A stretch of 64,000 nt of DNA, from assembly GCF_004297185.1 (NCBI RefSeq), contig NZ_PGCL01000003.1, positions 186,001-250,000 of the forward strand, given 5' to 3'. Under the pieces are notes generated by a model. The model did no database searches and was not told the DNA's origin. It saw only the letters and a program-made list of their open reading frames with translations. This document shows positions 3,123-57,450 of the stretch, one piece after another. The position numbers were made by a program, and so were the translations under genes. Position 1 is the first letter of the stretch. Every line of letters starts with the position of its first letter. Origin of the DNA: Methanofollis fontis (GTDB lineage: Archaea > Halobacteriota > Methanomicrobia > Methanomicrobiales > Methanofollaceae).

Positions 3123-3129
3123 CCAGAAG

Positions 3130-3141: not shown

Positions 3142-3176
3142 TGAAGTTGTATTTTTAGTTTAAGGGCTTTCCATCT

Positions 3177-4208: not shown

Positions 4209-4218
4209 GGTGTTTGAA

Positions 4219-36835: not shown

Positions 36836-39800
36836 TTATTCTTTTGGAGTCACAAGTGCGGCAAAATAAATCATATGAAGAGGACTTAGAACTAAATTTC
36901 GAGATTCTCCATTCATTTCAATATCTATGAGGTAATATTCGCCGTGAAACTTTGAAACTTCAACAGGGAATAGGTTTCCTTTTTCATATTCTTCAGCAGC
37001 ATCAAAAATGGCCCTCATATCACATCCACCTTCTTTAGCAATGGCGTGGCAATTCGGGCACATACAGAGTATATTGAATGGTTGATTATTCCACCAGATT
37101 GCACCGTCTCGATTTTCTTGAATGTGGTAAGTAACACTATAGAAACGACCCGTCTGCAGTTTTATCTGTAGCCCACAGATCTGACATCTTTCCTGATATT
37201 CATTGGAGAAGAATGACTTTGAATCTATACCATGGGGATCTATTATTTTTTGACCATCACTAATTGCTTTAACTCTCGATCTTTTAATGTGATTTCGAAC
37301 TCTCTTATTATACTGTTCAGGGCCCTGTGCAATATTGTTTTTCACTCGATTCCTGATATTGTCATGTAATTTGATCTCCAAGAATGGATCTGGTCCACAT
37401 TTCCACTCTAAAACAGTATCTTCCGAATGGACTGGCTTTCGATCACGCTTTAAACATTCAGCAATATTAGTTCGAATGGATTCTACATCTACCCCGTCAA
37501 GATCAGATATTCGATCATCTTTGGCATTGTCATAAATCACGCCACTTGATGATTTTTGATACCGATCTTCAATATCTCTCATTATTTGAATCAAATCTTC
37601 AAAATTACCATAATCTGAGATTTCTAAAAGATAACACAATATTTCACTTATATTCATATTCTGATCTACATACATGGCTTTACTTTGATGATCAAAGTGA
37701 GGAAGGGGGGTAAGTAATCTATTGATCTCAGGTCCAATAATCTGATAAATTGTTTTTACACGGAAGATAATAGCCATCTTGATATCAATTATCCCCAACG
37801 ATCTTAATTTTCCTTGCAATTTTGAACGAGTTCTTGGCAATAGACTTTTTTTATAGAGATCAAATATAACAGCAAGATGTTCTGTTTCCTCATTATTCAA
37901 AGAGGATTCATCTTCTATTATGAGTTTTCCAACATCTTGTGGAAGTGCAAAGCCAATTGACTGGGCCGCTTCTTGCATATTAAAAAGATCTTCTTCAGTG
38001 GCTTCAAGAAGAACAACCCATATTTTTGAATCGTAGAGACTCTGGAAGGTGGTATCATCATTGAAAACCAAAACAGCCTGATTTTTATGGAATTTTTCAA
38101 TTGCTGTATTAAAGTCATCTATGATGCGTCTTTGGTCAATAAAAGTCCAGGAATGATAATGCTTTAGAAGATCTCCCAGTAACTGTGTATTTTTCTTTGA
38201 TACACGTCGAGAATGAAAGATTACTTCAAATAACCCTGAATAAACACTCGGGCTGTTTCCCTCTTTTAACCCAATTATTTCTCCGACTTGTTTTCCAATT
38301 TTCCCATACTGCTCTTCAATTAAAGGAGTATCGTCAGGCACTTTGAAACCAAGGCAAAAATCTTTTGCTGCCCTTAATTTTCTGGAAGATCGATCATAAA
38401 TCTTAAGCTGAGATATATCTGCTCCAATAGCATGGTACTCGAGTGCAATCTCTAAAATATCATTATAATTATCAGGATTTATCATCTCCCAGAGGGCATT
38501 GACCTGATGAATGCTGTAATTATTAACCTGAAGTGCTTCAAGGTACTCAGGGTGGTATCCATTGCCTTTTTGGATATCTGTGGTAGCCTGAACAAAGTGA
38601 AGATATTTTTTTGCCTTCTTTAAATGCAAAATACTGGATGAATAAACCTTTATACAGTTTCTGGAACGAGCAACATTGCCATTTATATCTTGTAAAGGAA
38701 TGAGATCTCTTGGAATACCGCCCCATGTTATGTCTTGCAAACATTTCTCTCTCAAAGTATGCCGGAAATATCTGACATAATAATTGCCAATTATGAGTTT
38801 ATTATTCCAGATATCATATGCTTCAAGATCAAAACCATTCTTATTTTTCAGCCACGACTGATACAAAGGAAGGGCAAATTTACCGACATCATTTGATTCA
38901 TTCCTTATTATCCCCTGCGTCAAAGGATCAAGATCAACTACCAGGACATCAACAGGGTTGCTGGACGTATAATCATTATTTATACTATTGACCCATTTTT
39001 CAAATCGAAGATGATCACACCCACTAAAATCCGAAACATCACTGTATTTGACATTATATAATCTAAACTGGGGTTCATTCCGAATTTTACACAATATAAG
39101 AAATTTTCGCCATTCCTCTTTCCACCTCCTGGTTCTTTCAACACTCTTTTTGTTGTTATCATCGTCATTTTTTGTGTTTGGAGGAGTCCAATATTTTTTT
39201 GGGAAATATAAAGTAGGCAATCCTATATCTTCAAACAAGTGATCCTCAGGATATAGCCTCAAAACTCGTGGAAGAAGTAAATCGGAAATTTTAACTGGAT
39301 CTCCTGATGTCGATAGGAATTCTACATCTGACAGACCAGAAAGTGTTTCAATGAATTCATCATATTTGGACTCATTTTTTGTACGTTTTCCCCTATATTT
39401 TTGAAATATTGAGAAGAGGACATTATATCGAATATACTCTGTTTTTTTTGTAGGTAGGGTCTCGATAAGATAGGGTATCTGTAACTCCCGCAATATATTC
39501 TCATCATTTAATTCGGGTACTTCCAGAGATTTTAGCAAATCACGGACTGCACTGTTTCTTCTTACTTTCTGCTCAAAATTTTCTTTTTCTAGATTATTGT
39601 CGCCGCTGCTTTTTGGGTGATATGTATATTCGGTACTGACAATCGTATAATCAACACTATTTTCAAGACCAGTCTCTCTTGTGGATCGTGATGAAACCCA
39701 GAATATCTTACCCTCTCTTTTTTGGCCAATTAATGGTCCAAATCCTTTTTTTGGAAGAGGGAAGATCGGAGCGTTTAGCAATATGGAGCGATATTGATAA

Positions 39801-41356
39801 TAGGTGGATTTATAAGAATTTGAATGTCTATATTTGATGCAAGGACATTCTTCTATGTTAGAATAAAGAAAAATAAGATTATCAGTATTTTTTAGCCATC
39901 GATGTGGGATTGAGATGGACGATACTAATCTGATAAATGTATCCTCATCAATTTGACTAACACCATAGTCACATAATTTAGTCTTCCATTCGGTTTTCAC
40001 CAGCCAATCTGGATGGACAAATTTTTTACTCAAATATTTTTCTGCTCGATGCCGGAATGCAGGTTCAGCAGTAATCAGGGATTCTAAAAATTCTGATGGA
40101 ATGATAGCATCTTCTGGTTTTACCCATTGATCTTTTCCTGATGAATATGTACGGACCCAGCACTCTTCCTTGAGCAAACTCATCAATTGAGCAAATTGGG
40201 GCGCGAGTTGTTGATCCCCGGCGGTGGCAGGAAGGTAATCTAGCAGACGCTTGGCGGTGATAGATATTTTTTTTAGTGATATGACCGCTTCAACAAGAAT
40301 TTCTGGCAGTGCTGAAAGAAGGTGTTTATTCCAAGCATTTTGTTCGGGATCATGTAATTTTTCTCGATCGGCTGTTGTTTGTCCATCTAACTGAAGAAAC
40401 AGAGGCGAGGGCAGAGTTACAAGGGTTGGGAGGTAGCAGAACAATCTACCATCAGGGAGTATACTTTGTTCAATCGGAAGAGGAAACGCGGCAATAACCC
40501 TTCTTTTCAGCGACTTTCCTTTAATGTCTACGTTATCCCATCTTTTCTGGACAAGTTCCCGGGTAAATTCCACGTCTTTCGAGTATAAATAATACCTTCG
40601 CGTTACTCTGCTGTGCGAAGATAAAATCTCTATCTGGTCAGATCCTCTATCTACTGGTCTTACAGTTAACGAGTAAATGATATCGGGCTTTCTACGATGA
40701 TCCTCAACGACCAATTCAGATAATTGTTGCAAGAAAAGAAATGACTCTAACTCACCACTGACAATCTTTACAAGTTCATCTGCAATAATGTCAATGCTTT
40801 CAGATTCTGTAAAGGTAATTTTAAGTCGGGTACCTTTTCCATCTTGAGTCAATGAAGAGCCATTCAAGGGATGTGGGACAATACACTCGTCTTTGTTCAA
40901 AATGAAGTGCCAGGGAGGACTGTCAATCTCAACAGAGGATGCCAGAGCAAACACCGATTTAAATCCGATTCCCTTTTCTCCAATAAATCCATGAGAAAAT
41001 CTGTTTGCTTGAATTTTTGTAGATGATCCCGTATCGGTAATAGCAATAATATCTTCAACAGAAAAACCATCTTCGTTATATTGAATTGTTATTCCAGAGG
41101 TTTCGATAATAAAACGTATTTTTGGATTTTTTTCGGCATATTGCGCATCATCTGCATTTTGTATCAGTTCGAGTAAGAAGTGTTTTCTATCCTGGTACGC
41201 AGTGTCACTGAGAATATTTAGACTATTTCTGTAACCCGGAATTTCCCAATCGTAATGTTTCCTTAAATAACGAAGTTTTTCCTGTGCCTTGGAAGGAGGC
41301 AGAGTTCGTATCTGTTGTAGCAATTCATTCCTTTCCTGTTTGATATTCGTCGCCAT
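36836..41356 (-). CDS. Sacsin/GHKL-type ATPase with C-terminal HNH nuclease domain
   Basis: Very large protein, 1506 residues. The N-terminus has a GHKL (Hsp90/sacsin-like) ATPase: LLELIQNADDAQY (N67), NEDGFSVEDI, and the glycine-rich lid GFIGEKGIGFKSVF. The long middle is unassigned. Near residues 1390-1440 the pattern CQICG, then TYHIQENRDG, then LCMCPNCHAIAKEGG is that of an HNH endonuclease, with zinc cysteines and candidate catalytic His. Sacsin-like ATPases with effector domains are known in prokaryotic defence and the eukaryotic NO VEIN family; this exact pairing I cannot name. AAGGAG eight bases before the ATG supports the start. It follows the SNF2 gene by 13 bases in one operon. Codon use is strongly AT-rich, unlike the flanking genes, indicating recent transfer. 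Confidence 0.85.
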   Translation of the reverse strand: MATNIKQERNELLQQIRTLPPSKAQEKLRYLRKHYDWEIPGYRNSLNILSDTAYQDRKHFLLELIQNADDAQYAEKNPKIRFIIETSGITIQYNEDGFSVEDIIAITDTGSSTKIQANRFSHGFIGEKGIGFKSVFALASSVEIDSPPWHFILNKDECIVPHPLNGSSLTQDGKGTRLKITFTESESIDIIADELVKIVSGELESFLFLQQLSELVVEDHRRKPDIIYSLTVRPVDRGSDQIEILSSHSRVTRRYYLYSKDVEFTRELVQKRWDNVDIKGKSLKRRVIAAFPLPIEQSILPDGRLFCYLPTLVTLPSPLFLQLDGQTTADREKLHDPEQNAWNKHLLSALPEILVEAVISLKKISITAKRLLDYLPATAGDQQLAPQFAQLMSLLKEECWVRTYSSGKDQWVKPEDAIIPSEFLESLITAEPAFRHRAEKYLSKKFVHPDWLVKTEWKTKLCDYGVSQIDEDTFIRLVSSISIPHRWLKNTDNLIFLYSNIEECPCIKYRHSNSYKSTYYQYRSILLNAPIFPLPKKGFGPLIGQKREGKIFWVSSRSTRETGLENSVDYTIVSTEYTYHPKSSGDNNLEKENFEQKVRRNSAVRDLLKSLEVPELNDENILRELQIPYLIETLPTKKTEYIRYNVLFSIFQKYRGKRTKNESKYDEFIETLSGLSDVEFLSTSGDPVKISDLLLPRVLRLYPEDHLFEDIGLPTLYFPKKYWTPPNTKNDDDNNKKSVERTRRWKEEWRKFLILCKIRNEPQFRLYNVKYSDVSDFSGCDHLRFEKWVNSINNDYTSSNPVDVLVVDLDPLTQGIIRNESNDVGKFALPLYQSWLKNKNGFDLEAYDIWNNKLIIGNYYVRYFRHTLREKCLQDITWGGIPRDLIPLQDINGNVARSRNCIKVYSSSILHLKKAKKYLHFVQATTDIQKGNGYHPEYLEALQVNNYSIHQVNALWEMINPDNYNDILEIALEYHAIGADISQLKIYDRSSRKLRAAKDFCLGFKVPDDTPLIEEQYGKIGKQVGEIIGLKEGNSPSVYSGLFEVIFHSRRVSKKNTQLLGDLLKHYHSWTFIDQRRIIDDFNTAIEKFHKNQAVLVFNDDTTFQSLYDSKIWVVLLEATEEDLFNMQEAAQSIGFALPQDVGKLIIEDESSLNNEETEHLAVIFDLYKKSLLPRTRSKLQGKLRSLGIIDIKMAIIFRVKTIYQIIGPEINRLLTPLPHFDHQSKAMYVDQNMNISEILCYLLEISDYGNFEDLIQIMRDIEDRYQKSSSGVIYDNAKDDRISDLDGVDVESIRTNIAECLKRDRKPVHSEDTVLEWKCGPDPFLEIKLHDNIRNRVKNNIAQGPEQYNKRVRNHIKRSRVKAISDGQKIIDPHGIDSKSFFSNEYQERCQICGLQIKLQTGRFYSVTYHIQENRDGAIWWNNQPFNILCMCPNCHAIAKEGGCDMRAIFDAAEEYEKGNLFPVEVSKFHGEYYLIDIEMNGESRNLVLSPLHMIYFAALVTPKE

Positions 41357-41369
41357 TTGTAGACTCCTT

Positions 41370-44300
41370 TTATTGATTAACCCTTAGTGAAGCAATGGCA
41401 ACCAGCCTCAAGGTCATTACCAGATCGTCCTGATTTCGAATTTTTTGTATAAATTCTTCCCTTTTTTTTCTTACATTCTCCTTTTGCGACTCAATCAAAC
41501 GAATAAATTTTGAACTTGGCTCTTTCCCATCGCTAATGACCTTTTTATAATGCTCATGAATTCGGCTGTTGAGTTGGATTATACGTGATTCGGTTGTTTT
41601 ATCGATTGAATTTATACGTGATTGAATTCTATAGGCATTCCTGTCTTTCAACTCTCTCATTTCTATTTCAATCTGTGATTCAAGATCAATTTGTGCAGTC
41701 TCGATTGCCTCTCTTGGATTGATTGATGTTACTCGATGGTCCGAAGGAAGTACATTTTTCGCTAATAATCTTGAAAATGTTCGATAGTCACATTTAACAC
41801 AAGTTCTGTTATTGACATCTACCGGTACAGCCGAGAGAGTGATTTCTGTTGTAAAACCTTCTAGCATTACTTCAAAAAAAGGAACAAAGTAATCTCCAGG
41901 ACTCAATCCAATATTGTTAGATTCTCCAGAGATCGAAAAGACTCTGGGGATTTTTTCACTTTTTTCCAATTCCTGCAGCAAAAATTTGATCCAGAATCCA
42001 CATGGTGGAAGAAAAACGGCCTGGTTTCTTTGAATAGCAACTGTACCATTGAATACAACCTCAATTGGATAATTCAGTTCCATTATTCGAGATAATTCCA
42101 CAAAACTCCCTTCAGAACCAGGTTTTCGGCAATATTGCTCCAGTTGTGTGACAACCTGTTTGGATAGAGTGATATAGCCAGAACTTTCATCAATTTCGTT
42201 GAAATCACACTTATCCCATGAATGTAGACATTTTTTTGTCAGCCAAAGTGCATCTATTGGTTGAATGAACTCTGTGCCCGAATCAAGATTCTGAATTATC
42301 TGAGCAAATTTGTCTTCTCCCATCAATTCGATCCGATTCTGCTCAAATTTTTCCATCTCAAGTTTTGCATGCTCGACTGCAATTTCAATCTCTTGAATCC
42401 GTCGCTGTAACTGTTCTTCTGAAAGCGCTCCATTAATAATTTCATTCTGAAGATCTGCAAGTTTTGTTCCCAATATGGGTTCTAAAGCGCCGACGCTCTC
42501 TTCAACTAAATTTATTCGTTCATAGAGTGCTGAATATATGTTTTCATCAATGCTATCCTGAATATACATGCTAGCGACGAAGATCTTGTCCCCTTTTTGT
42601 CCAAAACGATCGATTCTTCCTATTCTTTGTTCAATTCTCATTGGATTATAGGGAAGATCATAATTGATGATTGTCTGACAGAACTGGAAGTCCAGACCTT
42701 CTCCACCTACTTCGCTGGATAAAAGGATCTCAAACTCCTCTTTTTCGAAGGACTCCATTATTTGATAACGTGTCTGGTTATTGCCATCTGGATAACTCGG
42801 AGTATCTCCATAAATTAATCCAACACTATAACCGTCCTCTGCAAGCCTTTTTTGGAGATACTTCAATGTTCTTACAAAAAAGGAGAAAACAATTATTTGA
42901 GGATTTACATGTGTTTGTTGAATTTTTTCGATGAGCTTACGAAATTCATCATATTTTGTATCAATGCCTTCAATTCTTTCTGCTTCAGAACGTAATTGGA
43001 TTAAGCAATTCCTTAAATCTGGTGTAAGAGATGTTTCATTCAATCCTTGATCATCATCAGGGTCGTCCTCACTCGCAGAATTATCAATAAGCATTGAATT
43101 ATTTACAATACACCAATTCAGGTACTCTTTCATTGCTGGGATGCAGCTGCTTGCCATTCTGCGTGGAATATTGGTAATAAAACCTAGAGCCGCTGGGTCC
43201 CCTCCTCTTTCGAGATACATCTTTTTGGATAATTCGATAACTCCATTGTGAAATTTCGTTTCTTCAGGAGTCAATTTAATTGGAATATTTATCGGTTCTC
43301 GGATAACACGGTGGTTGAGTGCCTCTCGTTTCAATGTCCGAGTGAATGAATTATCTAAAGGACTTAAATTACCCAAAATTCTATCAAAATTGGCAATTTC
43401 CTCTGAATTTAGTAATCCTCCATTTAATAGCCTTTTTTCAAATTTTTTAACCCCAGGATGATTGGAAATTGCTTCTCCAAGGATTCCAGATTTCATTTCC
43501 AGGATTTCTTTCAATATTTTTGAATTTACACTCGCCGATCGTTCAACCAGAAGTCGACGACAGCGATTAATCGATTTTACAGGGGATAAAATAGCATTAA
43601 AGGTTTGAAAATCCGGGAACAGCGATGGATTCAGAATATTCAATTGATTAAAGAGATCCTCATCTCTTAGGTTGAGTGGCGTTGCAGAGAGCATTACCAT
43701 CATTTCAGTCAAATTACTCAGCATACAGCCAATTTGATAACTCAATGTAGATGCGTTTCTTAGATGATGGGATTCGTCAATGATAACCATAGACCACAAT
43801 GGCGTCTCTCTTGAAGTGTTTAACACTTGGAGATTCTTGAAATGAGTTTCATTGCGCAACAATGGTAGACTGACAATTGACCAGAACATACCATCCGGGA
43901 TTATACCATCTTTCGCGTATTCAAAAAAGTTTCGAAGCGACTTGCTATCATGGAGATGAAATTGCAAATTAAAACGTTGTTTCATCTCTTTAACCCATTT
44001 TGGTCCTAAAGAGTGAGGGCACACGATTAGAATTGGAGATTTTCGATCGATTCGATTGCGGGATAAGAGTTCAATCAGGATAATACCGGTTTCTATTGTT
44101 TTACCAACACCAACTTCATCAGCGATGAATAATCGTCCATCTGAACCAGGGGCTACAAATTTGATCAGGGGTTTAAATTGGTACGGGTTGAATATTGTCT
44201 TGCTTGCAAGATAGCTATAATAATTGCCTTCTATAGGTTTTTTTAGACGGAACCAAGTCTGAAAAAGATGAAAATCATCACCATCTCCGATATCATCTGA

Positions 44301-44510
44301 ATAGAATGATTGAATAATTTCATGCTCTTCATCAATAATTTTGGAAAGGAATTTTTCTTGAATCGCTTTTGTAGTTCCATCAAAAGTCACACGGTACCCA
44401 ACAGAATTGTTCCGAATAATTACTTCGTTTACAGTACCAATTTTTTCGCTATTACCAATTTTAACGTTATCTCCTACTTTAAAAAGGGGTTTTATCATAT
44501 TAGTTCCCAT
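41370..44510 (-). CDS. SNF2/RapA-type helicase (DrmD/DpdE-like group)
   Basis: Superfamily 2 ATPase of 1046 residues. A short SH3-like N-terminus (KVGDNVKIGNSEKIGTVNEV) precedes the motor: IADEVGVGKTIETG (Walker A, ~131-138), ILIVCPHSLGPKW, VIIDESHHLRN (DESH box), MLSATPLNLRDEDLF. The second lobe has IIVFSFFVRTLKYLQ, GEGLDFQFCQTIINYDLPYNPMRIEQRIGRIDRFGQ. A coiled-coil and unassigned C-terminal part follow. RapA-like SNF2 proteins of this size occur in DISARM (DrmD) and Dpd modification systems; membership is inferred. It is the first gene of a two-gene AT-rich operon with the GHKL-HNH protein. Alternative start: ATG 44498 (MIKPLFKVGD). Confidence 0.87.
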   Translation of the reverse strand: MGTNMIKPLFKVGDNVKIGNSEKIGTVNEVIIRNNSVGYRVTFDGTTKAIQEKFLSKIIDEEHEIIQSFYSDDIGDGDDFHLFQTWFRLKKPIEGNYYSYLASKTIFNPYQFKPLIKFVAPGSDGRLFIADEVGVGKTIETGIILIELLSRNRIDRKSPILIVCPHSLGPKWVKEMKQRFNLQFHLHDSKSLRNFFEYAKDGIIPDGMFWSIVSLPLLRNETHFKNLQVLNTSRETPLWSMVIIDESHHLRNASTLSYQIGCMLSNLTEMMVMLSATPLNLRDEDLFNQLNILNPSLFPDFQTFNAILSPVKSINRCRRLLVERSASVNSKILKEILEMKSGILGEAISNHPGVKKFEKRLLNGGLLNSEEIANFDRILGNLSPLDNSFTRTLKREALNHRVIREPINIPIKLTPEETKFHNGVIELSKKMYLERGGDPAALGFITNIPRRMASSCIPAMKEYLNWCIVNNSMLIDNSASEDDPDDDQGLNETSLTPDLRNCLIQLRSEAERIEGIDTKYDEFRKLIEKIQQTHVNPQIIVFSFFVRTLKYLQKRLAEDGYSVGLIYGDTPSYPDGNNQTRYQIMESFEKEEFEILLSSEVGGEGLDFQFCQTIINYDLPYNPMRIEQRIGRIDRFGQKGDKIFVASMYIQDSIDENIYSALYERINLVEESVGALEPILGTKLADLQNEIINGALSEEQLQRRIQEIEIAVEHAKLEMEKFEQNRIELMGEDKFAQIIQNLDSGTEFIQPIDALWLTKKCLHSWDKCDFNEIDESSGYITLSKQVVTQLEQYCRKPGSEGSFVELSRIMELNYPIEVVFNGTVAIQRNQAVFLPPCGFWIKFLLQELEKSEKIPRVFSISGESNNIGLSPGDYFVPFFEVMLEGFTTEITLSAVPVDVNNRTCVKCDYRTFSRLLAKNVLPSDHRVTSINPREAIETAQIDLESQIEIEMRELKDRNAYRIQSRINSIDKTTESRIIQLNSRIHEHYKKVISDGKEPSSKFIRLIESQKENVRKKREEFIQKIRNQDDLVMTLRLVAIASLRVNQ

Positions 44511-44688: not shown

Positions 44689-47600
44689 TTATCCTATTTT
44701 ACCTAGGTCAATAATCCGAACATCAGGCCGCGCCTCAGTGAGGAGGGCGACCGTCTCCGGGTGACAGGTGAAGTACAGAACCTGCGTCTTACCAGCCAGG
44801 TCAGCGATCGCCTGACATCCCCTCCTCTTCCTCACCGGGTCGAAGTTCACCAGCACGTCATCGAAGACGACAGGGAGGACGGCATCGTGTTTGCTGAACT
44901 CAGTGATATAGCCGAACCGCAACGCAAGGTAGAGTTGTTGCGCCGTCCCAAGACTCAGGTCGGAGATTTCCTTCCTTTTTCCATTCCTCTCTTCAACGAC
45001 GACGGCCTCGGCATCGATCGGCCGGTAAATCTTCTGGTAGCGCCCACCGGTGATCCCGCTGAAATATCTGGTCGCCTCCAAGATGACCGCTGGCTGGCGT
45101 TCCTTCTCGTACTTCTCGATCGCCTGATTGAGGAGGTGGTCCGCGATCACCCTTACCGCCCATGCACGGGAGACCTCAGTAATGTCTTCGTGGAGACACC
45201 GCAATTTTGCTTCTTCGGCGGCCGTATGGTTGTCCTCTTCGAGTTCCTCGATCTCTTTCAGGAGGCGGCCGCGTCTTTCTCTTTTCTTCTCCCCTTCAGG
45301 TGTGATTTCATCCAGGCGCTGCCTGCACTCTTTGACCGTCTCTGCAAGGTCGGTGCGTTCGGTGTTCTGCAGGAGTGTAACAAAGGCCGGGAAAGCCCGT
45401 TCTCCGCCTGCCGCCTTCTTCAGGCGGAGTTCGGCATCTGCCTCCTCTTTCGCGAGCCTGATTCTCTCCCCCTGGATCCGGGTATGGTTCAGGAACGATT
45501 CTTCGTCTGTTACTGATGCCCCAGAAAAGAGGTCGGCCCGTTTCCTGGCCACATCCTCCATTTTTTCAATGATTGACTTCTCGTCCTTCTGTATCCTGGC
45601 ATAGTCTCTTACCAGAGTATCATGCTGCCTCTTGCGCTCAATCTGCTCTTTGAGTGATGCCACCGCGTTCTGCACCTGCACCTCGACCGAGGGGGCAGGG
45701 TCTGCCCCGATTGCGACAGCGACCTCCCCCGCCGCCGTATCATACGCTACAATCGTCTCCTTCAGGTCGGCACACCTGATCCCAGCCGCATCCCGAGCCC
45801 TGATCCTGTCCTGTGCCTTCTCAATTGTGGGAATGATATCAAGGACGACTTCAGGTGTGAGCGAGGTGTCGAGGGAGACAGCCTCCAGCCATGCCTGCCA
45901 CTCCTTCAGGGTTTCCTTTTTCTCCTCTGCATTTGCATCAATGTCGGCCTGTACGCGCTCAAGATCTGCGACATGATCGGCATACGTCTTGCGAGAAACC
46001 TGCAGGGCCTTCTCCAGTCTCTCCCTCTCCTGGAGGGTGTGCACCTCGCCGTCCAGCTTGGATCGCATGGTATTGATCGCTGAGAGATCGGGAATGGTAG
46101 AGAATCCGCACTCTTTTGCCTTATTCCTGAGAGTCACCTCCCGTTCGGCAAGATCCGTCTCCTTTCCCTGCCGTACTCTGGCCATGTCCAGAACGTCATC
46201 GCCTGCTGGAATGTCGACAGGTGTTTCTCGTGTGACACCCCGAAGATAAATCCCGGCAATCACCAGCATCAGGAGGAAGAGGCCGCCACCGACGATGATT
46301 GAGTCCATCATTACGCCACCGACAAGAGCGACCACACCTGCCGCCACGATCATCAGGGCCGGCCAGCGGGGAAGAGAGACCCCGCGGGCTGCCGCGTCCT
46401 GTTTTAGCCGCGTCCCGATCTCGGCCTCCTTCTCAATGAGACGGTCGAGTTCGTCCTTTGCCTTCGACCATGCCGGGACCTCGACACTCAGGTCGTCGAG
46501 GGCCGCTCTTTTCTTCTGTACCCCATCCATGGTCCCGGTGACGGAGAGGGCGGAGAGAGTCGCCTCGTCTGTCTGTATCTTTGCCTGCACCCCCCTCTTC
46601 TCCCCGTCAAGGCGATCTCCCTCAGACGTCTGGGTTCTGGCCTCCTCGTTGAGGTCGGAGAAATGGGTCCGGAAATCTTCGACCTGCTGGCGGGTTCGGG
46701 CAGAAACATCGAAAAAAGCGAGGGCCTCACCCTGCAGGCCGACCTGCCTGGCGAGGGCGTCAACCTCCTGCGTGAGTTTTTCTGTCTCCCGGACGGCCTC
46801 GTCATAGGCGCCAAGATCGGCGAGATACTTCTTCAGGCCGTTCTCCAGTTCATGGATCGCGTCGGCATGGACACAGACCACTTCATCGACAGTGCATCCT
46901 TCGAGGTCCTGAGCGTCCTGCTGGAGATTGCGGCGGCACGCCTTCAGTTCCTCCTCCAGTTCTTCTGCCTTCTCGTCGAAGCCCCTGAGGATCTGGACAC
47001 CCCCCTCGGGAATGGGAGCAACCGTCGGAAGATCAGACAGACGTCTCTTCGTCTCGGTATAGCCGACCCAGTCCTCCCAGACCGAGAGCAGGTTCTCGGC
47101 GTCCTGCATCTTCTGCCTGAGCCTTTTCTCCTCTTTTTTCAGGTCGGCAAGAGTGCTCTCTAATTCTTTCAGTTCGATCTGGAGACAGTCGTACTCCTCC
47201 TGCGTCCCTCTGCACTGGCGCAGGGTCTTCTCCAGGCCAGTAATCTCTGAGAAGATCTCCTTGATCCTGATATCTTTCCAGGCCCTTCCAGGTTTGAAGA
47301 GTGCATCACGGTCCTTATGAACCTGCGCCCGGACATCAGCGATTGAGCCTCTGGTGATCCCGATCCCGGCACTCATCACCCTGCTCTGTATCGATCCAGC
47401 AGAGAGACTCTTGATGTCGTTCAGTTCGCCTATGCCAAAGGCATAGACATTCTCGAAGAACTGCCGGTCTGCTGTGCCGATGAGGTCGGGCAGGGTACAG
47501 CCAGCAGGACTTCCGTCGACAGAGACGAGCGAGGGTTCGGCACGCTTATCAGAGCGTTCAAGGAGCACGGTCCCCTCTTCGGGTGTGGTCAGTCGCAGCC

Positions 47601-47814
47601 ACCCTCCCATATCCCCACCGTTCAGAGGTGGGTAAGAGTTTTGGCCCTGTTTCCTGGAGGGGAACCCAAATAACATCCGGCGGATGAACTCAAGTAGGGT
47701 CGACTTTCCCGCCTCGTTCGGTCCAGTGATGACGGTGAGATGAGGGGACAATACATCCAACTTTGTGTTATGAAAGTGGCCGAAGCCGTCGACGTAGATC
47801 TCCTCGATCTTCAT
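44689..47814 (-). CDS. YhaN-like SMC/SbcC-type AAA ATPase
   Basis: DNA-repair ATPase of 1041 residues with the YhaN/SbcC layout. It starts MKIEEIYVDGFGHFHN with a Walker A in ITGPNEAGKSTLLEFIRRMLFG, followed by an AAA_27-type N-domain (FFENVYAFGIGELNDIKSLS) and long coiled coils. A transmembrane-like hydrophobic segment sits in the middle (PALMIVAAGVVALVGGVMMDSIIVGGGLFLLMLVIAGIYL, two short helices), typical of YhaN. The C-terminal signature is LSLGTAQQLYLALRFG with Walker B PVVFDDVLVNFD. It overlaps the upstream nuclease gene by four bases, so the two form an Mre11/Rad50-like pair, possibly membrane-associated. Confidence 0.9.
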   Translation of the reverse strand: MKIEEIYVDGFGHFHNTKLDVLSPHLTVITGPNEAGKSTLLEFIRRMLFGFPSRKQGQNSYPPLNGGDMGGWLRLTTPEEGTVLLERSDKRAEPSLVSVDGSPAGCTLPDLIGTADRQFFENVYAFGIGELNDIKSLSAGSIQSRVMSAGIGITRGSIADVRAQVHKDRDALFKPGRAWKDIRIKEIFSEITGLEKTLRQCRGTQEEYDCLQIELKELESTLADLKKEEKRLRQKMQDAENLLSVWEDWVGYTETKRRLSDLPTVAPIPEGGVQILRGFDEKAEELEEELKACRRNLQQDAQDLEGCTVDEVVCVHADAIHELENGLKKYLADLGAYDEAVRETEKLTQEVDALARQVGLQGEALAFFDVSARTRQQVEDFRTHFSDLNEEARTQTSEGDRLDGEKRGVQAKIQTDEATLSALSVTGTMDGVQKKRAALDDLSVEVPAWSKAKDELDRLIEKEAEIGTRLKQDAAARGVSLPRWPALMIVAAGVVALVGGVMMDSIIVGGGLFLLMLVIAGIYLRGVTRETPVDIPAGDDVLDMARVRQGKETDLAEREVTLRNKAKECGFSTIPDLSAINTMRSKLDGEVHTLQERERLEKALQVSRKTYADHVADLERVQADIDANAEEKKETLKEWQAWLEAVSLDTSLTPEVVLDIIPTIEKAQDRIRARDAAGIRCADLKETIVAYDTAAGEVAVAIGADPAPSVEVQVQNAVASLKEQIERKRQHDTLVRDYARIQKDEKSIIEKMEDVARKRADLFSGASVTDEESFLNHTRIQGERIRLAKEEADAELRLKKAAGGERAFPAFVTLLQNTERTDLAETVKECRQRLDEITPEGEKKRERRGRLLKEIEELEEDNHTAAEEAKLRCLHEDITEVSRAWAVRVIADHLLNQAIEKYEKERQPAVILEATRYFSGITGGRYQKIYRPIDAEAVVVEERNGKRKEISDLSLGTAQQLYLALRFGYITEFSKHDAVLPVVFDDVLVNFDPVRKRRGCQAIADLAGKTQVLYFTCHPETVALLTEARPDVRIIDLGKIG

Positions 47815-49127
47815 GCTTTCTCCTCCTCCGGGTTCAGGAGGTCGAGGAGATAGGTTTCGGCCTCTCTGAACAGGTCGGGGATCTCTTCAGGACTGACGGG
47901 ATCACACTTTTTTCCTCTCTTATCAGTGAACAGATCCTGAAAAAGGGGTTTGAGAGTCTCTGCAGCATGTGGGTTCTGCTGGAGGCCGTCAGAGATCCGC
48001 AGGATATCCCCGACGAGGTCCTCCCGCTGGACGAGCGTCTCGCGGTCGATGGGCAGGGCCGTGTTGTCGGTGATCCGGTCGATATAAACCTCTGGCTCGA
48101 CTTCCCTGAGATGGTCGGCAAGGCCTTCGGCCGCTTTCTTCTCCCTGAGAGGGCGGTGGACCTCTCCCCGGCCGGTGAGGGTGAGGCGACAGCAGACCTG
48201 ACGGCCGCCCCTCTCCTCCCGTATCTCGTCGAGAGCCTCCAGGATGGCGGAGTCGAGTTCGTCGAGCGTTTCGATGCCTTCAATAGAGAGGATGGTATCC
48301 TCCCAGCAGATCTCTGCAGTCTCCACAAAGGTGGGCTCGATGGTGCCATCTGGTCTGACCACAACATAGTAGCACCCCCGTGGACCAGACTCCCCAATGT
48401 CACGCCCCTGTGGGATGCCAGGGTAGACGATTGTTGGGTAGGTCTGGTGGACTACCGCAGGTTTGTGGATGTGACCGAGGGCCCAATAGTCATAGCCCCT
48501 CGCGGCCAGATCTTCCTCTGAGCAGGGGGCATAGGAGACGTGTTCGCCAGTACTGCTGCCGAGCGTGCCGTGTAGGAGACCGATGGTGAAGGGCCAGTCG
48601 TCTTCTTTCTCCGGGAACGTCGCAGCGAGGTTCTCCCAGACCGAAGACCTAGGATAACTCACCCCCACAATGGCCGCCTTCCTTTCTCCATCTTTTTCGA
48701 AGAAAACAACCTCGGGACCATCCTCTGCCATAATATGAACATTTTTGGGCCACTTGAGAGACCGGGACCAGGCGCTATGTGGATCATGGTTGCCGCAGGC
48801 GATGTAGACCAGGATACCGTGACTATCAAGCCTCTCAAGGGCGTGGAGGAGTTTGAGTTGCTCATAGATCTGCTGCCTCTTACTGTCATACAGATCGCCT
48901 GCGATCAGGACGAAATCGACCTCGTCCCTGATCGCCAGGTCAACGATCCGGTCTAAGGCACGGTATGATGCCTGGGTAAGTTTTTCGGCCATATTCTCAT
49001 CCATAGCCCTGATGCCAGTGAGTGGACTGCCGAGGTGGAGGTCTGCGGTGTGGATGAAGGTAAGTGTGTCTGGAGATATTTTTCGAGTTTTTTTCGGGGG
49101 TTGTGTCATGCTATGCCTCAAATTCAT
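47811..49127 (-). CDS. YhaO-like DNA-repair exonuclease (Mre11/SbcD family)
   Basis: Calcineurin-like phosphoesterase nuclease of 438 residues. Metal-binding motifs of the Mre11/SbcD fold are visible in order: FIHTADLHLGSPL (D-x-H), VDFVLIAGDLYDS (GDxxD), VYIACGNHDPHS (GNHD), then IGLLHGT and YWALGHIHKPAV (GHxH). It ends in a helical segment that in this family contacts the ATPase. The 438-residue length and pairing with the YhaN-like ATPase match the YhaO-YhaN (SbcDC-like) class. Alternative start at M7 (MTQPPKKTRK). Confidence 0.91.
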   Translation of the reverse strand: MNLRHSMTQPPKKTRKISPDTLTFIHTADLHLGSPLTGIRAMDENMAEKLTQASYRALDRIVDLAIRDEVDFVLIAGDLYDSKRQQIYEQLKLLHALERLDSHGILVYIACGNHDPHSAWSRSLKWPKNVHIMAEDGPEVVFFEKDGERKAAIVGVSYPRSSVWENLAATFPEKEDDWPFTIGLLHGTLGSSTGEHVSYAPCSEEDLAARGYDYWALGHIHKPAVVHQTYPTIVYPGIPQGRDIGESGPRGCYYVVVRPDGTIEPTFVETAEICWEDTILSIEGIETLDELDSAILEALDEIREERGGRQVCCRLTLTGRGEVHRPLREKKAAEGLADHLREVEPEVYIDRITDNTALPIDRETLVQREDLVGDILRISDGLQQNPHAAETLKPLFQDLFTDKRGKKCDPVSPEEIPDLFREAETYLLDLLNPEEEKA

Positions 49128-50485: not shown

Positions 50486-52663
50486 TTAGTCCCGGGGACG
50501 AAAAGGAGCAACATTTTCTGGCGCAACAATGTCGGTATTGATATATCCTGCAGCAAAACCTTCTGCCAGAAGATCCTCAGGCAGGTAGCGGTCATACTTC
50601 TCCTGGACCAGATCAGGATATTGTTGTACAATATCAGTTTTTGAGGGACAATGAGTGAGAATATCGGTATAAAAATCCATGACCTCATCTGCAGTTGCCC
50701 CATGAAAGAAAAGCGCAATATCTCTGTCACGAACATCAAAGTCCCCCCAGCATGACCCAAGGATCGTGAGCGTGCGCAGGGCAGCCGACCCTGCCCAGGG
50801 AAACCAGAATGTGCCGTCTGAAAGGGGTATCAGATCAAACTCCAGGACGCCGGTTGACCTGGCAACGGATCTGGCAGAGGTGAGGAGAGATTTCCCGACG
50901 GTGTCAAGATATGTCGGAACCCTGTTTGAGAGGAGCATGGCATGCATCTTCTGGTGGACCATCGGATGAATGTCCGTTGCACCTTTCCCTGGAAAATATG
51001 GCACTTTGCCGCCTTTTGACGGTTGAACTGACATCTCTTTGCGGTCCAGGTCCACCATGAGCACCTCCCATCGGCGGCCTGCAAGGATCAGATATTCTTG
51101 ATTCTCTATACCAAAGGTCGGTGCAATGCTTCCTATCTGCTTACTTTTCCATTTCACCTTTATTTCCTGTTCTGTCGGGAAACAGGCATAAAAATCTAAA
51201 CGACGTACTATCCGCTCCCCTTGAAGGCCCAGAATAAGTAATCCTTCAGATGCCTGCTCAATCAGATCCGCTTTCGCTATACTTCGGAGAATACGGGTGA
51301 ATGCTGACGGCGTCACCCAGGCAAACGCCCCCTGCCCCACGAGTACATCATAGATTGTGGCCGCGTGAGCACCGCCCCGCTCGGTGATGACGCTCAGAAC
51401 CTGCTGGACAAGAGTGGAGTAATGAGGGAGACCAACCCTTGGAGGTTCACACCACCCTTCAAGCATGAGTTCGAAGAGGGATGTGGCACGGAGAAGCGAG
51501 GGATAGAGCTGGTCCACAAGGTCTCCCTCACCCCCGTGCGATTCAGGGATGAACATGATCATGACAGATGGGTTTCCCTCCCGCCGACCGCTTCGACCAA
51601 GACGCTGGCGAAGAGAGTGCACAGACCACGGGGCCCCGATCTGCCCGACTCGTGAAACATCCCCGACATCAATGCCAAGTTCAAGCGTGCTCGAACAGAA
51701 TGTTGCGGTCGGATGGCTGGATTTCAGGGCCATCTCAGTCTCTTCACGCTCAACTCTGGAGAGAGAACCATGGTGAACCCTGAAGGGATTGAGCAACCCC
51801 GCCCCAGTGAGAGACCGGTTCACCTGATCGGTATAGAGTTCCAGGTTTGAGCGACTGTTGATGTAGATCAGACTGTTTTTTCCATAAAAATGATTGATAA
51901 TATCTTCAGAGAGTTTTATCAGGGCTGGATCCTCATTCTCATCATCTCCTGACGTGTCAAAGAGATACCCTTTGATCAGAAAAGAAATATCCTGCCCTCC
52001 TCCTTCGTCTGAAACGATCCGCACCCCTTCTGGTTCTCGGGGCGACAACCACCTCTGCGTTGCAGAATAATCACCCAGAGTCGCCGAGAGACCGATGACG
52101 CGGGGTTGTACTGCACTGATCTGCGCGATCCTTGAAAGAAGACTTTTCAGGTGCATACCCCTTTCTGTGCCGATAAAGGCATGGATCTCATCGATGACAA
52201 CATAGGGGAGAGATTGGAAGAGGGATGGCAACCAAGAGGAACGATTGATAAAGAGCGACTCGATCGACTCGGGAGTGATGAGAAGTACACCTGAAGGTCT
52301 GGAAAGAAATCGTTTTTTTCTTGCACTCCCGACGTCTCCGTGCCACTTAAAGACCGGGGTATCCATCGCCTTGCAGAGAATCTCAAGCCGCCTGAACTGG
52401 TCATTAATGAGAGCCTTGAGTGGTCCTACATAGAGGGCACTGACACCATTGCTTCTTTTCTGTACTACATCCGAGAGTATTGGAAGAAATGCTGCTTCAG
52501 TCTTGCCCGCTGCAGTCGCCGCAGAGATGATCAAATCTTCTGGCCCTTCATTGAACGCAGCGATGGTATTGACCTGGATCGAACGCAGCTCAGTCCAGTG
52601 CATATTGTACAGTTCTTTCTGGACCAGAGGGTGAAGGAGAGAAAAGGCGCCAGCCACCACCAC
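50486..52663 (-). CDS. Lhr/BrxHI-like DEAD/DEAH-box helicase
   Basis: Superfamily 2 helicase of 725 residues, Lhr-core type. Motifs: Q-motif region LRSIQVNTIAAF, Walker A SAATAAGKTEAAF, GPLKALINDQF, TPESIESLF, DEIH in YVVIDEIHAFIGTERG, SATLGD, then SLIYINSRSNLEL, FCSSTLELGIDVGDV and RQRLGRSGRREG. The C-terminal part has the Lhr winged-helix and unassigned regions. In type 2 BREX the equivalent protein is BrxHI, and the gene next to it encodes a BrxD-like ATPase, as here. It is the last gene of the terB-brxD-helicase operon, eight bases after the previous stop. Confidence 0.87.
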   Translation of the reverse strand: MVVAGAFSLLHPLVQKELYNMHWTELRSIQVNTIAAFNEGPEDLIISAATAAGKTEAAFLPILSDVVQKRSNGVSALYVGPLKALINDQFRRLEILCKAMDTPVFKWHGDVGSARKKRFLSRPSGVLLITPESIESLFINRSSWLPSLFQSLPYVVIDEIHAFIGTERGMHLKSLLSRIAQISAVQPRVIGLSATLGDYSATQRWLSPREPEGVRIVSDEGGGQDISFLIKGYLFDTSGDDENEDPALIKLSEDIINHFYGKNSLIYINSRSNLELYTDQVNRSLTGAGLLNPFRVHHGSLSRVEREETEMALKSSHPTATFCSSTLELGIDVGDVSRVGQIGAPWSVHSLRQRLGRSGRREGNPSVMIMFIPESHGGEGDLVDQLYPSLLRATSLFELMLEGWCEPPRVGLPHYSTLVQQVLSVITERGGAHAATIYDVLVGQGAFAWVTPSAFTRILRSIAKADLIEQASEGLLILGLQGERIVRRLDFYACFPTEQEIKVKWKSKQIGSIAPTFGIENQEYLILAGRRWEVLMVDLDRKEMSVQPSKGGKVPYFPGKGATDIHPMVHQKMHAMLLSNRVPTYLDTVGKSLLTSARSVARSTGVLEFDLIPLSDGTFWFPWAGSAALRTLTILGSCWGDFDVRDRDIALFFHGATADEVMDFYTDILTHCPSKTDIVQQYPDLVQEKYDRYLPEDLLAEGFAAGYINTDIVAPENVAPFRPRD

Positions 52664-52671
52664 TTCCCCCC

Positions 52672-53991
52672 TTATAGCCTGAAGGCCCGGAGTTCGTCAT
52701 CGCCGGTTACAGTCTGTCCCTCCTCCTCTCCCCTGCTGGAAGGAGTTGCAGACGGCCTGGAGATCAGTTCCTCCCATCGGGCTTCCGGATTCTGTTCGAG
52801 CACAGAGAGGAGTCCGACAAACCGTTTCACGGCATCACGAGGTGTCTGGTAAAACTCTGCCCCCAGTATCCCGGAACAGTACTCCATAAACTGCGTGACC
52901 CCCTCATCAGGTATGAGATATGCCGATGCATCCCCCATGGCAAAGACCTTTCTGATATTATGGAAGAGGACAAAGAGATCCTCGGCGGTGAGGTTTTCCA
53001 GCCTTATAACTGGCCTTGAGAAGTCTTTCAGCCCATGGATCGCAAACTCGTTCTCGCGGAGTCGTGATGCCAGAGCTTCGTAACTCGCGATCCCCCGGCG
53101 AGGATCTGAAAAAAATTCATCTGTGCCGGCAAAGATGAACCCGATACCAGAAACATTTCCCTGCAGGCAATCGTTGACAATACGCAGGATCATCTCATAG
53201 TTTGTGTTTCGTGCCTGTGTATTGCTGAGACGGTGAGATAAGACACCCATTTCGTCGAGGTTGACAAGGAGTCCTGAATACCCTGCCATTCTGACAAATG
53301 AAGCCCAGACCTTGAAGTAATCATAGATGTCACTGTCGCCGATGATCATCCGGACACCAAGATCCATGCGGGCCTCAGTCTTGGTCTCATACCCGCCAGA
53401 CAACCACCTGAGGGCCGATGACATGAGGGGCTCGTCGCCATGCTGAAAACCTTCATAATACCGGCCGATCACGGTTGCAAAGTCATATCCATGTACCAGA
53501 TCCTGGAGGGACCGCAGCTCCTGGGTGATGGCGCGGACGATTTCATCATCTCCTTTTCCATCCTGCCTGAGACGGTAATCAAGATCTGAAACCCAGCGCT
53601 CAACAACGCTGGCAAGAGCTCCACCCTCAGGTTTTGCTCGAGTGGCCATGTTGTGCATCAGTTCAGCATACAACGCTCTGGCCTGCCCTCCTGTGGCATA
53701 GAGGCGTCGGTCAGGGGTGATGTCGGCCTGAACCACCACAAAGCGTTTTTCCAGTGCAACCTGCCTGGATAAATTCAGAAAGAAACTCTTCCCTGATCCA
53801 TACTGACCAATAATGAAACGGACTGTTGCTCCATTGTCTTTGATCTGTCCGAGGTCATCCAGGATGGCATTGATCTCATCCTTTCTTCCGACCTGGATAT
53901 GCTGAAGGCCAATTCTCGGAACGACCCCCGCGCGCAAAGATTGAAAAATCGCATTTCTTTCACGTTTTTTTATTTGAGCCATCATAATCAT
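52672..53991 (-). CDS. BrxD-like ATP-binding protein (DUF2791)
   Basis: P-loop ATPase of 439 residues. After the conserved opening KRERNAIFQSLRAGVVPRIGLQHIQVGR comes Walker A in FIIGQYGSGKSFFLNLSRQVALE. Then follows a DITPDRRLYATGGQARALYAEL segment and Walker B in GLLVNLDEMGVLSHRL. This arrangement is the BREX BrxD (DUF2791) family. AAAGG immediately precedes the first ATG, so initiation at the third or fourth codon (MMAQIKK) is better spaced. It lies three bases after terB and eight before the helicase gene. The partners PglX, PglZ and PglW are absent from the window. Confidence 0.87.
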   Translation of the reverse strand: MIMMAQIKKRERNAIFQSLRAGVVPRIGLQHIQVGRKDEINAILDDLGQIKDNGATVRFIIGQYGSGKSFFLNLSRQVALEKRFVVVQADITPDRRLYATGGQARALYAELMHNMATRAKPEGGALASVVERWVSDLDYRLRQDGKGDDEIVRAITQELRSLQDLVHGYDFATVIGRYYEGFQHGDEPLMSSALRWLSGGYETKTEARMDLGVRMIIGDSDIYDYFKVWASFVRMAGYSGLLVNLDEMGVLSHRLSNTQARNTNYEMILRIVNDCLQGNVSGIGFIFAGTDEFFSDPRRGIASYEALASRLRENEFAIHGLKDFSRPVIRLENLTAEDLFVLFHNIRKVFAMGDASAYLIPDEGVTQFMEYCSGILGAEFYQTPRDAVKRFVGLLSVLEQNPEARWEELISRPSATPSSRGEEEGQTVTGDDELRAFRL

Positions 53992-53994
53992 CCT

Positions 53995-56403
53995 TTAAAG
54001 CGGGATCATGCTCTGGTCCACGATCACCGAGCCCTCATCATCCTCCAGAATAAAATCACCCAAGTGTTCTTCTGACCAGACATTGATCGCCTCGATCGTC
54101 GCCTGGGGCATGCAATGATGGCACTGAACCAGGCGGATAAACTCATCCCGCGTCCATACTTCAGTGGTGAGAAGTTCTTCAAGGATCGGCACATAACGGG
54201 ACTGAAGACCTTCAATGCCATCATGGTCAGAACGTGGCGTTTCCTTCGCTGTGATCTCCTCCGTGCTCTCCTCTCCCTCGAATACAAAGACCCCAAGCTC
54301 GGTCTCCTCCCTTTTAAAAACCTCACCGAGGATCTCTGAGACGTCTCTGGTCTCATCCATGATCCTGGAAACCGCTCCTTTATCGATGGTTAATACAGGG
54401 GGAGTTTCTACAGCAGGCAGCGAAGGAGGCTCCACAACAGGTGATGGAGCGGTTTCTACAACAGGTGGCGGGAGATTCTCTCCTTGTGTGAACATTACTC
54501 CACTGTGAACGGCGACAGGGACATCAGCAGCATCCACATTTTCCGCATGAGATAGAAGCCAGTGCAGGTATCCCTCTTCGATATCCATCGCCTTGAAGAT
54601 CCGGTTGAGGTTCTTTTTTTCTTTCGGGTCAACGGTTCCATCAGCGGTGGCCATATCAACAAGGAACTGAGCAACCAGAAGACGGGCGTCAGGATCGAGC
54701 CCCTCATTCAGTCTTTTGCCAAGTCGTGTCAGTGAAGGGGGCGTCTGAATATAGAGATCTTCAAGTGCATCAAGACACTGATACTCAAAAGGAGAGAGTG
54801 AAAAGGTCTCCTTGAAAAATGTGTGTAGATGTTCACGTTCTTCAGGATCGACGTGACCGTCAGAGGCAGCAATGCCGATCCCCAATTCCAGCATAAGGGC
54901 ATAAGACGCAAAAGAAGGGCTCAGGGCATTCTGATCATCGACGGGAAGAATCATAAGATCCTCATCCCACTGATATCCGTTCCCTGCATGTTGTATGTGG
55001 GGGAGGAGCACATATCCCCCGTCATGCACCGTCCTGGAGAGATTCCGACTCTGCACAGGGGTGAGTCGATGACGCCTTTCGATCCCGATCACTTCGGCAA
55101 GGGAGGAGACCGGGACACGTGCCCAAGGGTTATCCTTTCTGTGCTCCCTGAAGAGGTGGTCCCATGCGTCCTGATCCGGGTGGGAGGTTACGGCCCTCAG
55201 TTCTTCTGGCATGCAGCCATAGGCTTTCCAGGTGATGGTCCCTCCACTTTTTGAGAACTGATTTATAAACGGCCTGATGTCATGTATACAACCCTCCCAG
55301 AGGGAAAAGAGGCCATTGAATTGTTTTTTCCGCCTGAGGGGATGAGGTATGAAGCAGGGTACAGGAGCGGCACTGGAAGATGATGAGAGAAGGCTTGGGC
55401 TGGCCGGACGATATTCTAGTTTATATGGATTTTTTGCCGGGACGACCCTGAGACCATTATCAAACATGGAGAGATAGCGCTTCTGAAATAATGTTTTAAA
55501 GTATGAATTCTCTTTTTTTATTGCAGACGGAACAGAGGCACCAGAATAGTGACGTGCGACACTGTATGCAAGTTTCCAAGGGATCGGTTCTCCTTTCAGA
55601 GCAAACCAAGCAAGTGCAACCAAGGTAGTTGTTTCATTCAGTTCAGTCAGGTCCGGGAAGTAGAGCGTGAGGTCTTCCTGGGTCATGGTGTCCAGGTGCA
55701 TTGCCACAATGTAGCCAAGAAAACCCTCCAGATAGGTAGTGAATGAATGTGAGGTCTGGTATCTGTCGAGAAGACGTCGCACTTCGTGTACGACCAGATC
55801 GATGTCCTTTTTTTCGATGAGTGCCCGCCTTTCAAGCCCATAGAAGTAGATAAAGGCATAGCCGATCTCACCAAGATCTTTGTCTTTGCCTGTCGAGAGC
55901 CATGAAAGGTAATTTGCCCTCTGATCAGGGGTGAGCTGAGAGTAGCATGGCCAGTAAGGGAGAGAAGGAGTATTTGAATCGCTCGACTGACCTGTTGGGA
56001 GAGTTATGTCCAGACAGGAAGCCTCATCAGGCGATACTGTGCCGTGGGACCAGTAGGTGAGGGGATCTTCGATTGTGTAACCCTGTACAGTGATTGACGT
56101 TTGTTTCCCGGCCCAGAGAAGGACATTTTTCTGTGAAGTTTCTGCAATTTCTGTACGTGCTTCTTCTTTTGTCTGGCCAACACCTGATCTTGTTCTGGTT
56201 CCAGACGAAAAAACGGGATCATCTGTTCGATCATCTGCTGTAAGAGGAGGTGTTTTGGTTCCCCAGTCTTTTTGGGTTTTTTCAGGGTTTTCTGGATTCT
56301 GAGATGTTTTCCTGGCCCGAGTCTGCAAAGCACGAAAGAAAATGAAGAGGAATAGCCCAAATAAAATCAGTACAATCAATACAATAATTAATATTTCAAG
56401 CAT
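53995..56403 (-). CDS. Membrane-anchored TerB_N-TerB-TerB_C protein
   Basis: 802-residue protein with an N-terminal transmembrane helix (ILIIVLIVLILFGLFLFIFF). A polar linker leads to a TerB_N domain (from about YWPCYSQLTPDQRANYLSWLSTG through LYFPDLTELNETTTL). A TerB helical domain follows (LELGIGIAASDGHVDPEEREHL and MATADGTVDPKEKKNLNRIF, acidic metal-binding loops). The chain ends in TerB_C (RYVPILEELLTTEVWTRDEFI to QSMIPL). TerB domains bind divalent metals and are linked to stress and defence at membranes. As first gene of the operon it would tether the BrxD-like ATPase and helicase to the membrane; that role is inference from the anchor and gene order. Confidence 0.87.
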   Translation of the reverse strand: MLEILIIVLIVLILFGLFLFIFFRALQTRARKTSQNPENPEKTQKDWGTKTPPLTADDRTDDPVFSSGTRTRSGVGQTKEEARTEIAETSQKNVLLWAGKQTSITVQGYTIEDPLTYWSHGTVSPDEASCLDITLPTGQSSDSNTPSLPYWPCYSQLTPDQRANYLSWLSTGKDKDLGEIGYAFIYFYGLERRALIEKKDIDLVVHEVRRLLDRYQTSHSFTTYLEGFLGYIVAMHLDTMTQEDLTLYFPDLTELNETTTLVALAWFALKGEPIPWKLAYSVARHYSGASVPSAIKKENSYFKTLFQKRYLSMFDNGLRVVPAKNPYKLEYRPASPSLLSSSSSAAPVPCFIPHPLRRKKQFNGLFSLWEGCIHDIRPFINQFSKSGGTITWKAYGCMPEELRAVTSHPDQDAWDHLFREHRKDNPWARVPVSSLAEVIGIERRHRLTPVQSRNLSRTVHDGGYVLLPHIQHAGNGYQWDEDLMILPVDDQNALSPSFASYALMLELGIGIAASDGHVDPEEREHLHTFFKETFSLSPFEYQCLDALEDLYIQTPPSLTRLGKRLNEGLDPDARLLVAQFLVDMATADGTVDPKEKKNLNRIFKAMDIEEGYLHWLLSHAENVDAADVPVAVHSGVMFTQGENLPPPVVETAPSPVVEPPSLPAVETPPVLTIDKGAVSRIMDETRDVSEILGEVFKREETELGVFVFEGEESTEEITAKETPRSDHDGIEGLQSRYVPILEELLTTEVWTRDEFIRLVQCHHCMPQATIEAINVWSEEHLGDFILEDDEGSVIVDQSMIPL

Positions 56404-57339: not shown

Positions 57340-57450
57340 TGCTGCGAGGGGGATCCGAACCCCCGACCTCCAGATATCTCAGATCTGGGCGCTTCGTTGT
57401 TGCTCAAAACCCTATGAGTCTGGCGCCCTAACCAGCTAGGCCACCGCAGC
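57340..57450 (-). tRNA. Elongator tRNA-Met (anticodon CAU) with a 37-nt intron
   Basis: On the minus strand, acceptor GCTGCGG pairs with TCGCAGC (one G-U) and discriminator A. The D-arm TGGCCTAGCTGGTTAGGGC and T-arm GGGGG-TTCGGAT-CCCCC are intact. The anticodon stem CCAGA/TCTGG encloses CTCATA, followed by 37 extra bases (GGGTTTTGAG to CTGAGAT), which is an intron at the canonical site after position 37. Removing it gives loop CTCATAA and anticodon CAT. Archaeal elongator tRNA-Met commonly has an intron here. The sequence can also form the splicing helix, but I did not fold it computationally. A CAT anticodon could in principle be tRNA-Ile2. Confidence 0.88.

What the first reader, a model, noticed from the sequence alone, without database searches (positions are those of the whole stretch)
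50486..56403. TerB-BrxD-BrxHI operon without BREX methylase or phosphatase genes
Three co-directional genes spaced by 3 and 8 bases encode a membrane-anchored TerB protein, a DUF2791 ATPase and an Lhr-type helicase. BrxD and BrxHI are known from type 2 BREX, but PglX, PglZ, PglW and PglY are absent here. The three could act alone as a membrane-linked DNA-surveillance system, with the metal-binding TerB protein as sensor or anchor.
Basis: partly seen in the sequence, partly recalled or inferred. Interest (0 to 1): 0.65.

Follow-up and report, generated by a model that had tools for sequence, protein, structure and literature searches.

The report
Ordinary Shango antiviral operon, in archaeon

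Summary
In detail: three co-directional genes on the minus strand, spaced by 3 and 8 bases, encode a membrane-anchored TerB protein, a DUF2791 AAA+ ATPase and an Lhr-like SF2 helicase. The genome shows no PglZ, no type 2 PglX and no BrxC/PglY.

The triad is already characterised. It is Shango (SngA, SngB, SngC; Millman 2022, Johnson 2023). PADLOC's Sng models beat its BREX models by wide margins: SngB 542 against BrxD 172 bits, SngC 745 against BrxHI 411. A Sulfitobacter plasmid locus published as Shango has the same three genes in the same order, and the window's SngB and SngC fall inside a well-supported clade with it.

The triad recurs without pgl genes in bacteria, plasmids, viral contigs and other archaea (8 of 393 genomes of the phylum). 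The N-terminal anchor is shared by most SngA proteins. In this genus the genes lie in a low-GC hotspot beside a conserved intron-containing tRNA-Met gene.

The molecular mechanism of Shango remains unsolved. I favour loading of the SngC helicase by SngB on invading DNA, tethered at the membrane by SngA (inference).

The parts
53995..56403 (-). SngA: N-terminal transmembrane anchor (about residues 2-26), TerB_N (101-283), TerB (507-610), TerB_C (673-797)
   Evidence: Pfam, PADLOC SngA E 5e-55, hydropathy, AF2; acidic TerB residues D515, D588 and E595 invariant in 14 aligned SngA proteins
52672..53991 (-). SngB: DUF2791 / ORC-Cdc6-type AAA+ ATPase
   Evidence: PADLOC SngB E 4e-163 vs BrxD 5e-51; NCBIfam BrxD 170 bits, below its 350-bit cut-off; invariant Walker A G.GK and Walker B DE
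50486..52663 (-). SngC: Lhr/Ski2-like SF2 helicase
   Evidence: PADLOC SngC E 2e-224 vs BrxHI 2e-123; motifs GKTEA, DE.H, SAT, QR.GR.GR invariant in 17 of 17 homologues; Lhr is the nearest solved structure
57342..57450 (-). Intron-containing tRNA-Met(CAT) that bounds the variable island; ends approximate
   Evidence: aragorn with introns allowed; the scan without introns missed it; present at the same place in 8 of 8 genus members examined

Best explanation
The three genes are an archaeal copy of the Shango anti-phage system (SngA-SngB-SngC). Shown: gene order, protein families, conserved catalytic motifs, membrane anchor, location in a variable defence island. Inferred mechanism: SngA sits at the membrane and tethers and gates the complex through its metal-binding-type TerB domains. 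SngB, an ORC/Cdc6-type AAA+ ATPase, assembles on incoming or replicating viral DNA and loads SngC, an Lhr-like translocase/helicase. SngC then unwinds or remodels the viral DNA or its replication intermediates and so blocks replication. No nuclease domain was found in the three proteins, so destruction of the DNA, if any, would use other nucleases. I put identity as Shango at about 0.96 and this mechanism at about 0.35; the score below is for identity and defence role.
For: PADLOC assigns all three to SngA/B/C with large margins over BREX. A published Shango locus (Sulfitobacter faviae SCSIO W_1865 plasmid; PMC10221251 gives SngA 1-2544, SngB 2522-3829, SngC 3835-6012) is exactly the locus retrieved as L038. 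The window's SngB and SngC group with that and 15 other triad loci, separated by long branches with 100/100 support from BrxD-like ATPases and from a BrxD/BrxHI-like dyad. Shango inhibits phages in P. aeruginosa PAO1, with earlier E. coli data (PMC10250203). All 8 phylum genomes with a true SngB (460-617 bits) have TerB protein, SngB and SngC in that order. ATPase and helicase motifs are invariant. The region has 36-58% GC against about 64% outside and carries other defence genes. Loader-helicase idea: the BREX survey PMC12839542 proposes that BrxD may load BrxHI and that the two are a tight dyad.
Against: No activity was shown for this locus or, in the papers found, for any archaeal Shango. 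The mechanism steps are not demonstrated for any Shango in the papers found. The AF2 model of SngA is only moderate (pLDDT 65.5, five sequences), and the fold search gave no significant whole-protein match.
Confidence: 0.93

Rival explanations
1. A reduced type 2 BREX (Pgl) system: BrxD and BrxHI kept after loss of the pgl genes, with a TerB protein acquired.
For: SngB and SngC are genuinely related to BrxD and BrxHI; SngC, BrxHI, DruE and DpdJ form one helicase clade in PMC12278908.
Against: Sng models win by about 370 and 330 bits. No PglZ, PglX or BrxC in the genome. The same triad recurs in eight bacterial plasmid lineages examined without pgl genes beside it. Type 2 BREX was found in 1309 taxa but in no archaea (PMC12839542).
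Confidence: 0.03
2. The functional unit is larger: Shango works with the neighbouring Mre11-like nuclease and Rad50/YhaN-like ATPase (44689-49127) as effector.
For: The pair lies beside Shango in 3 of 8 phylum genomes with Shango (window, G140, G340), while only about 35 of 393 genomes carry a close homologue of the nuclease. Shango has no nuclease domain of its own.
Against: Order and orientation differ: downstream in the window, upstream in G140, divergent in G340. In the window 1.36 kb separates it from sngC. Most Shango loci lack it. In G074 the same hotspot holds Mre11/Rad50 pairs without Shango. Shared residence in a defence hotspot explains this.
Confidence: 0.05
3. A metal or tellurite stress-response operon rather than antiviral defence.
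For: TerB domains are named for tellurite resistance.
Against: Homologous triads give phage defence; defence-island setting and mobile distribution on plasmids and viral contigs; the partner proteins are a DNA helicase and an AAA+ ATPase.
Confidence: 0.02

Closest known systems
Shango (SngABC)
   Same: Same three families in the same order with overlapping or near-abutting genes; all three PADLOC models match; an N-terminal anchor is common to most SngA proteins, including Klebsiella and Salmonella.
   Different: Host is a methanogenic archaeon; SngA is divergent (23% identical to the Klebsiella, Salmonella and Sulfitobacter proteins), as SngA generally is.
Type 2 BREX (Pgl) BrxD-BrxHI dyad
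   Same: Related ATPase and helicase as adjacent genes.
   Different: No PglX, PglZ or BrxC/PglY; much lower scores to BrxD/BrxHI than to SngB/SngC; TerB protein instead.
Other TerB-containing defence systems (Bunzi; 'Dionysus')
   Same: Use a TerB domain.
   Different: The papers read link them to Shango only through the TerB domain; their other genes were not compared here.

Membership tests
Shango | Three-gene operon: TerB protein, ATPase, DEAD/DEAH helicase, in that order | tested here: met
   definition in PMC10250203
Shango | SngA, SngB and SngC profile matches, better than to BREX models | tested here: met
   SngA 186, SngB 542 (BrxD 172), SngC 745 (BrxHI 411) bits
Shango | Groups phylogenetically with a published Shango locus | tested here: met
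   with L038 = published Shango
Shango | Intact ATPase and helicase motifs | tested here: met
Shango | Anti-virus activity | not testable with these tools
   Shown for the P. aeruginosa relative, not for this locus
Type 2 BREX | PglZ present | tested here: not met
   genome 98.5% complete
Type 2 BREX | PglX present | tested here: not met
Type 2 BREX | BrxC/PglY ATPase present | tested here: not met
   only SngB and one other BrxD-sized ATPase match PF10923
Type 2 BREX | PglW present | not tested
   No separate search; none adjacent to the operon
Type 2 BREX | BrxD above the family cut-off | tested here: not met
   170 bits against a cut-off of 350

The most novel reading that the evidence does not exclude
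In archaea, Shango has acquired a dedicated effector: the adjacent Mre11-like nuclease and Rad50/YhaN-like ATPase degrade DNA that SngC opens, making a five-gene system that differs from bacterial Shango.
Probability: 0.05. Interest if true: 0.45.

Novelty: already known. Interest (0 to 1): 0.15.

Why it matters
It helps mechanism work a little: comparing archaeal and bacterial copies shows which residues matter (59 invariant in SngB and 78 in SngC over 17 loci).

Tried and rejected
Literature searches for TerB + BrxD/BrxHI or DUF2791 found nothing because the system is named Shango. Hidden BREX genes elsewhere in the genome: rejected. The second DUF2791 gene as part of BREX: rejected, no BREX genes adjoin it and it is a widespread chromosomal gene paired with a TPR protein. 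PF20473 (MmeI-type methylase) gave only one weak sub-threshold match. Solved structures: none for SngA or SngB; the one SngA hit at E 0.008 (a latex-like protein) looks like chance. AF2 + Foldseek of SngA: no significant whole-length match; only a small protein, 2h5n, aligned over about 116 residues with high probability, probably on the TerB domain. Promoter/terminator scan: counts near the shuffled expectation, and a bacterial promoter model does not suit an archaeon. One search used a made-up 20-residue query by mistake and is ignored. Searches were tool errors. The foundational papers (Millman 2022; Anantharaman 2012 on Ter systems) are not in the library, so what rests on them comes from memory or from the citing papers.

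Full report
Observation. Pfam gives TerB_N, TerB and TerB_C in the first, BrxC_BrxD (E 1e-145) in the second, DEAD plus Helicase_C in the third. The first protein starts with a strongly hydrophobic helix.

Identity. PADLOC matches the three to SngA (E 5e-55), SngB (4e-163) and SngC (2e-224). BrxD and BrxHI are clearly worse (5e-51 and 2e-123), and the NCBIfam BrxD model is far under its cut-off (170 of 350 bits). Shango is a published anti-phage system of a TerB protein, an ATPase and a DEAD/DEAH helicase; in P. aeruginosa it gave 10-100-fold protection against many phages, and an E. coli Shango had been reported shortly before (PMC10250203).

Direct benchmark. A Sulfitobacter faviae plasmid locus published as Shango with coordinates 1-2544, 2522-3829 and 3835-6012 (PMC10221251) is the same record I retrieved by homology (L038). 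In maximum-likelihood trees of 17 triad loci, the window's SngB and SngC lie with this locus and the others, nearest to two other genomes of the same order (G140, G159). They are separated with 100/100 support from orphan BrxD-type ATPases (SngB tree) and from an archaeal BrxD/helicase dyad (both trees).

Host. The genome lies in the same order as G382, whose 53,001-base contig and SngB equal those of Methanospirillum stamsii, and the flanking pycA/pycB genes are of the split type common in methanogens. The host is therefore most likely a methanogen of the order Methanomicrobiales (inference).

BREX test. The genome is 98.5% complete. It has no PglZ and no type 2 PglX, and PF10923 finds only SngB and one other ATPase of BrxD size. 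PglW was not searched separately. A 2026 BREX survey found type 2 BREX in 1309 taxa but in no archaea (PMC12839542).

Recurrence without pgl. In 393 genomes of the phylum, 8 have a true SngB (460-617 bits) and all 8 have TerB protein, SngB and SngC in order. Among plasmids, 693 records have a SngB homologue. Eight loci read from the annotation or by ORF search (Azospirillum, Cetobacterium, Sulfitobacter, Klebsiella, Salmonella, Burkholderia, Moraxella, Paenibacillus) all have the triad and no pgl genes beside it; in Moraxella the first gene is annotated only as hypothetical. Seven viral-collection contigs carry SngB, six of them with recognisable SngC and six with recognisable SngA, some cut or broken. 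Shango is also reported in Asgard archaea (PMC11291487).

Anchor. An N-terminal hydrophobic segment is present in most SngA proteins, among them Klebsiella, Salmonella, Sulfitobacter, Cetobacterium, Burkholderia and most archaeal copies. It is not evident in Moraxella or Paenibacillus, and G353 is cut by a contig end. The anchor is therefore a feature of the family, not of this locus.

Setting. Read in the direction of pyc, the order is pycB, pycA, tRNA-Met, sngA, sngB, sngC, Mre11-like, Rad50/YhaN-like, DrmD-like SNF2 helicase, Tiamat-like TmtA, UvrD-PDDEXK helicase-nuclease. GC falls from about 64% to 45-58% over Shango and the Mre11/Rad50 pair and to 36-40% over the DrmD-like and TmtA-like genes. 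The tRNA-Met has an intron and was missed by the standard scan. It lies at the same place in all eight genus members examined. In G387 only about 2.1 kb with one 366-aa ORF separates pycA from the UvrD gene; G140 has Shango at this same site, but after the Mre11/Rad50 pair; G074 has Mre11/Rad50 pairs without Shango. So this is a tRNA-linked defence hotspot with exchangeable cargo. No further copy of the tRNA 3' end was found in the window.

Mechanism. Shown: intact Walker A/B in SngB and SF2 motifs in SngC, invariant over 17 loci; conserved acidic TerB residues and anchor in SngA. Inferred: SngB loads SngC on DNA, as proposed for BrxD and BrxHI (PMC12839542), and SngA tethers or gates at the membrane. 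There is no recognised nuclease domain, so blocking of viral replication is favoured over direct cleavage. I rate this mechanism at about 0.35. The nearest solved relative of SngC is Lhr.

Verdict. Real, correctly described, and already known as Shango. Interest is low for the target itself. The more unusual side observations, a widespread BrxD-TPR pair in this archaeal order and a BrxD/helicase dyad with an unknown third protein, are listed under noticed in passing.

Noticed in passing
G000:C2:76675-77871 (L003 8613-9884, -): A second DUF2791 ATPase, closer to BrxD (430 bits) than SngB (151), lies directly downstream of a ~600-aa TPR protein. The same pair was found in all 10 further loci inspected, and the ATPase class occurs in all 8 sampled genomes of the genus and about 47 genomes of two other families of the order. 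It looks like a core, non-BREX gene pair of unknown function.
   Followed up: partly
window 44689-49127 (-): Mre11/SbcD-like and Rad50/YhaN-like genes overlapping by 4 bases; the pair also lies beside Shango in G140 and G340 and without Shango in the G074 hotspot.
   Followed up: partly
window 36836-44510 (-): A 36-40% GC two-gene block: a Tiamat (TmtA)-like protein of 1506 aa and a DrmD-like SNF2 helicase 13 bases away, with no DISARM partners seen nearby. Possibly a two-gene Tiamat-helicase module.
   Followed up: no
L047 113-4281 and L048 349-4517 (G045, G037; also L046): An operon in another archaeal family of a 258-aa protein without Pfam match, a BrxD-like ATPase and a SngC/BrxHI-like helicase: the same dyad with a different third gene, outside the Shango clade.
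   Followed up: partly
window 57342-57450 (-): Intron-containing tRNA-Met(CAT), missed by the standard tRNA scan, bounding the defence hotspot after pycA in all eight genus members examined.
   Followed up: yes
L038 6015-11826: A PD-(D/E)XK nuclease gene and a UvrD helicase gene (AddAB-like) follow sngC directly in the Sulfitobacter plasmid; large UvrD-related genes also follow Shango in G140 (L076).
   Followed up: no
L067 4075-5991: In one viral-collection contig the sngA reading frame begins with a resolvase-like sequence, suggesting an insertion that truncated sngA.
   Followed up: no
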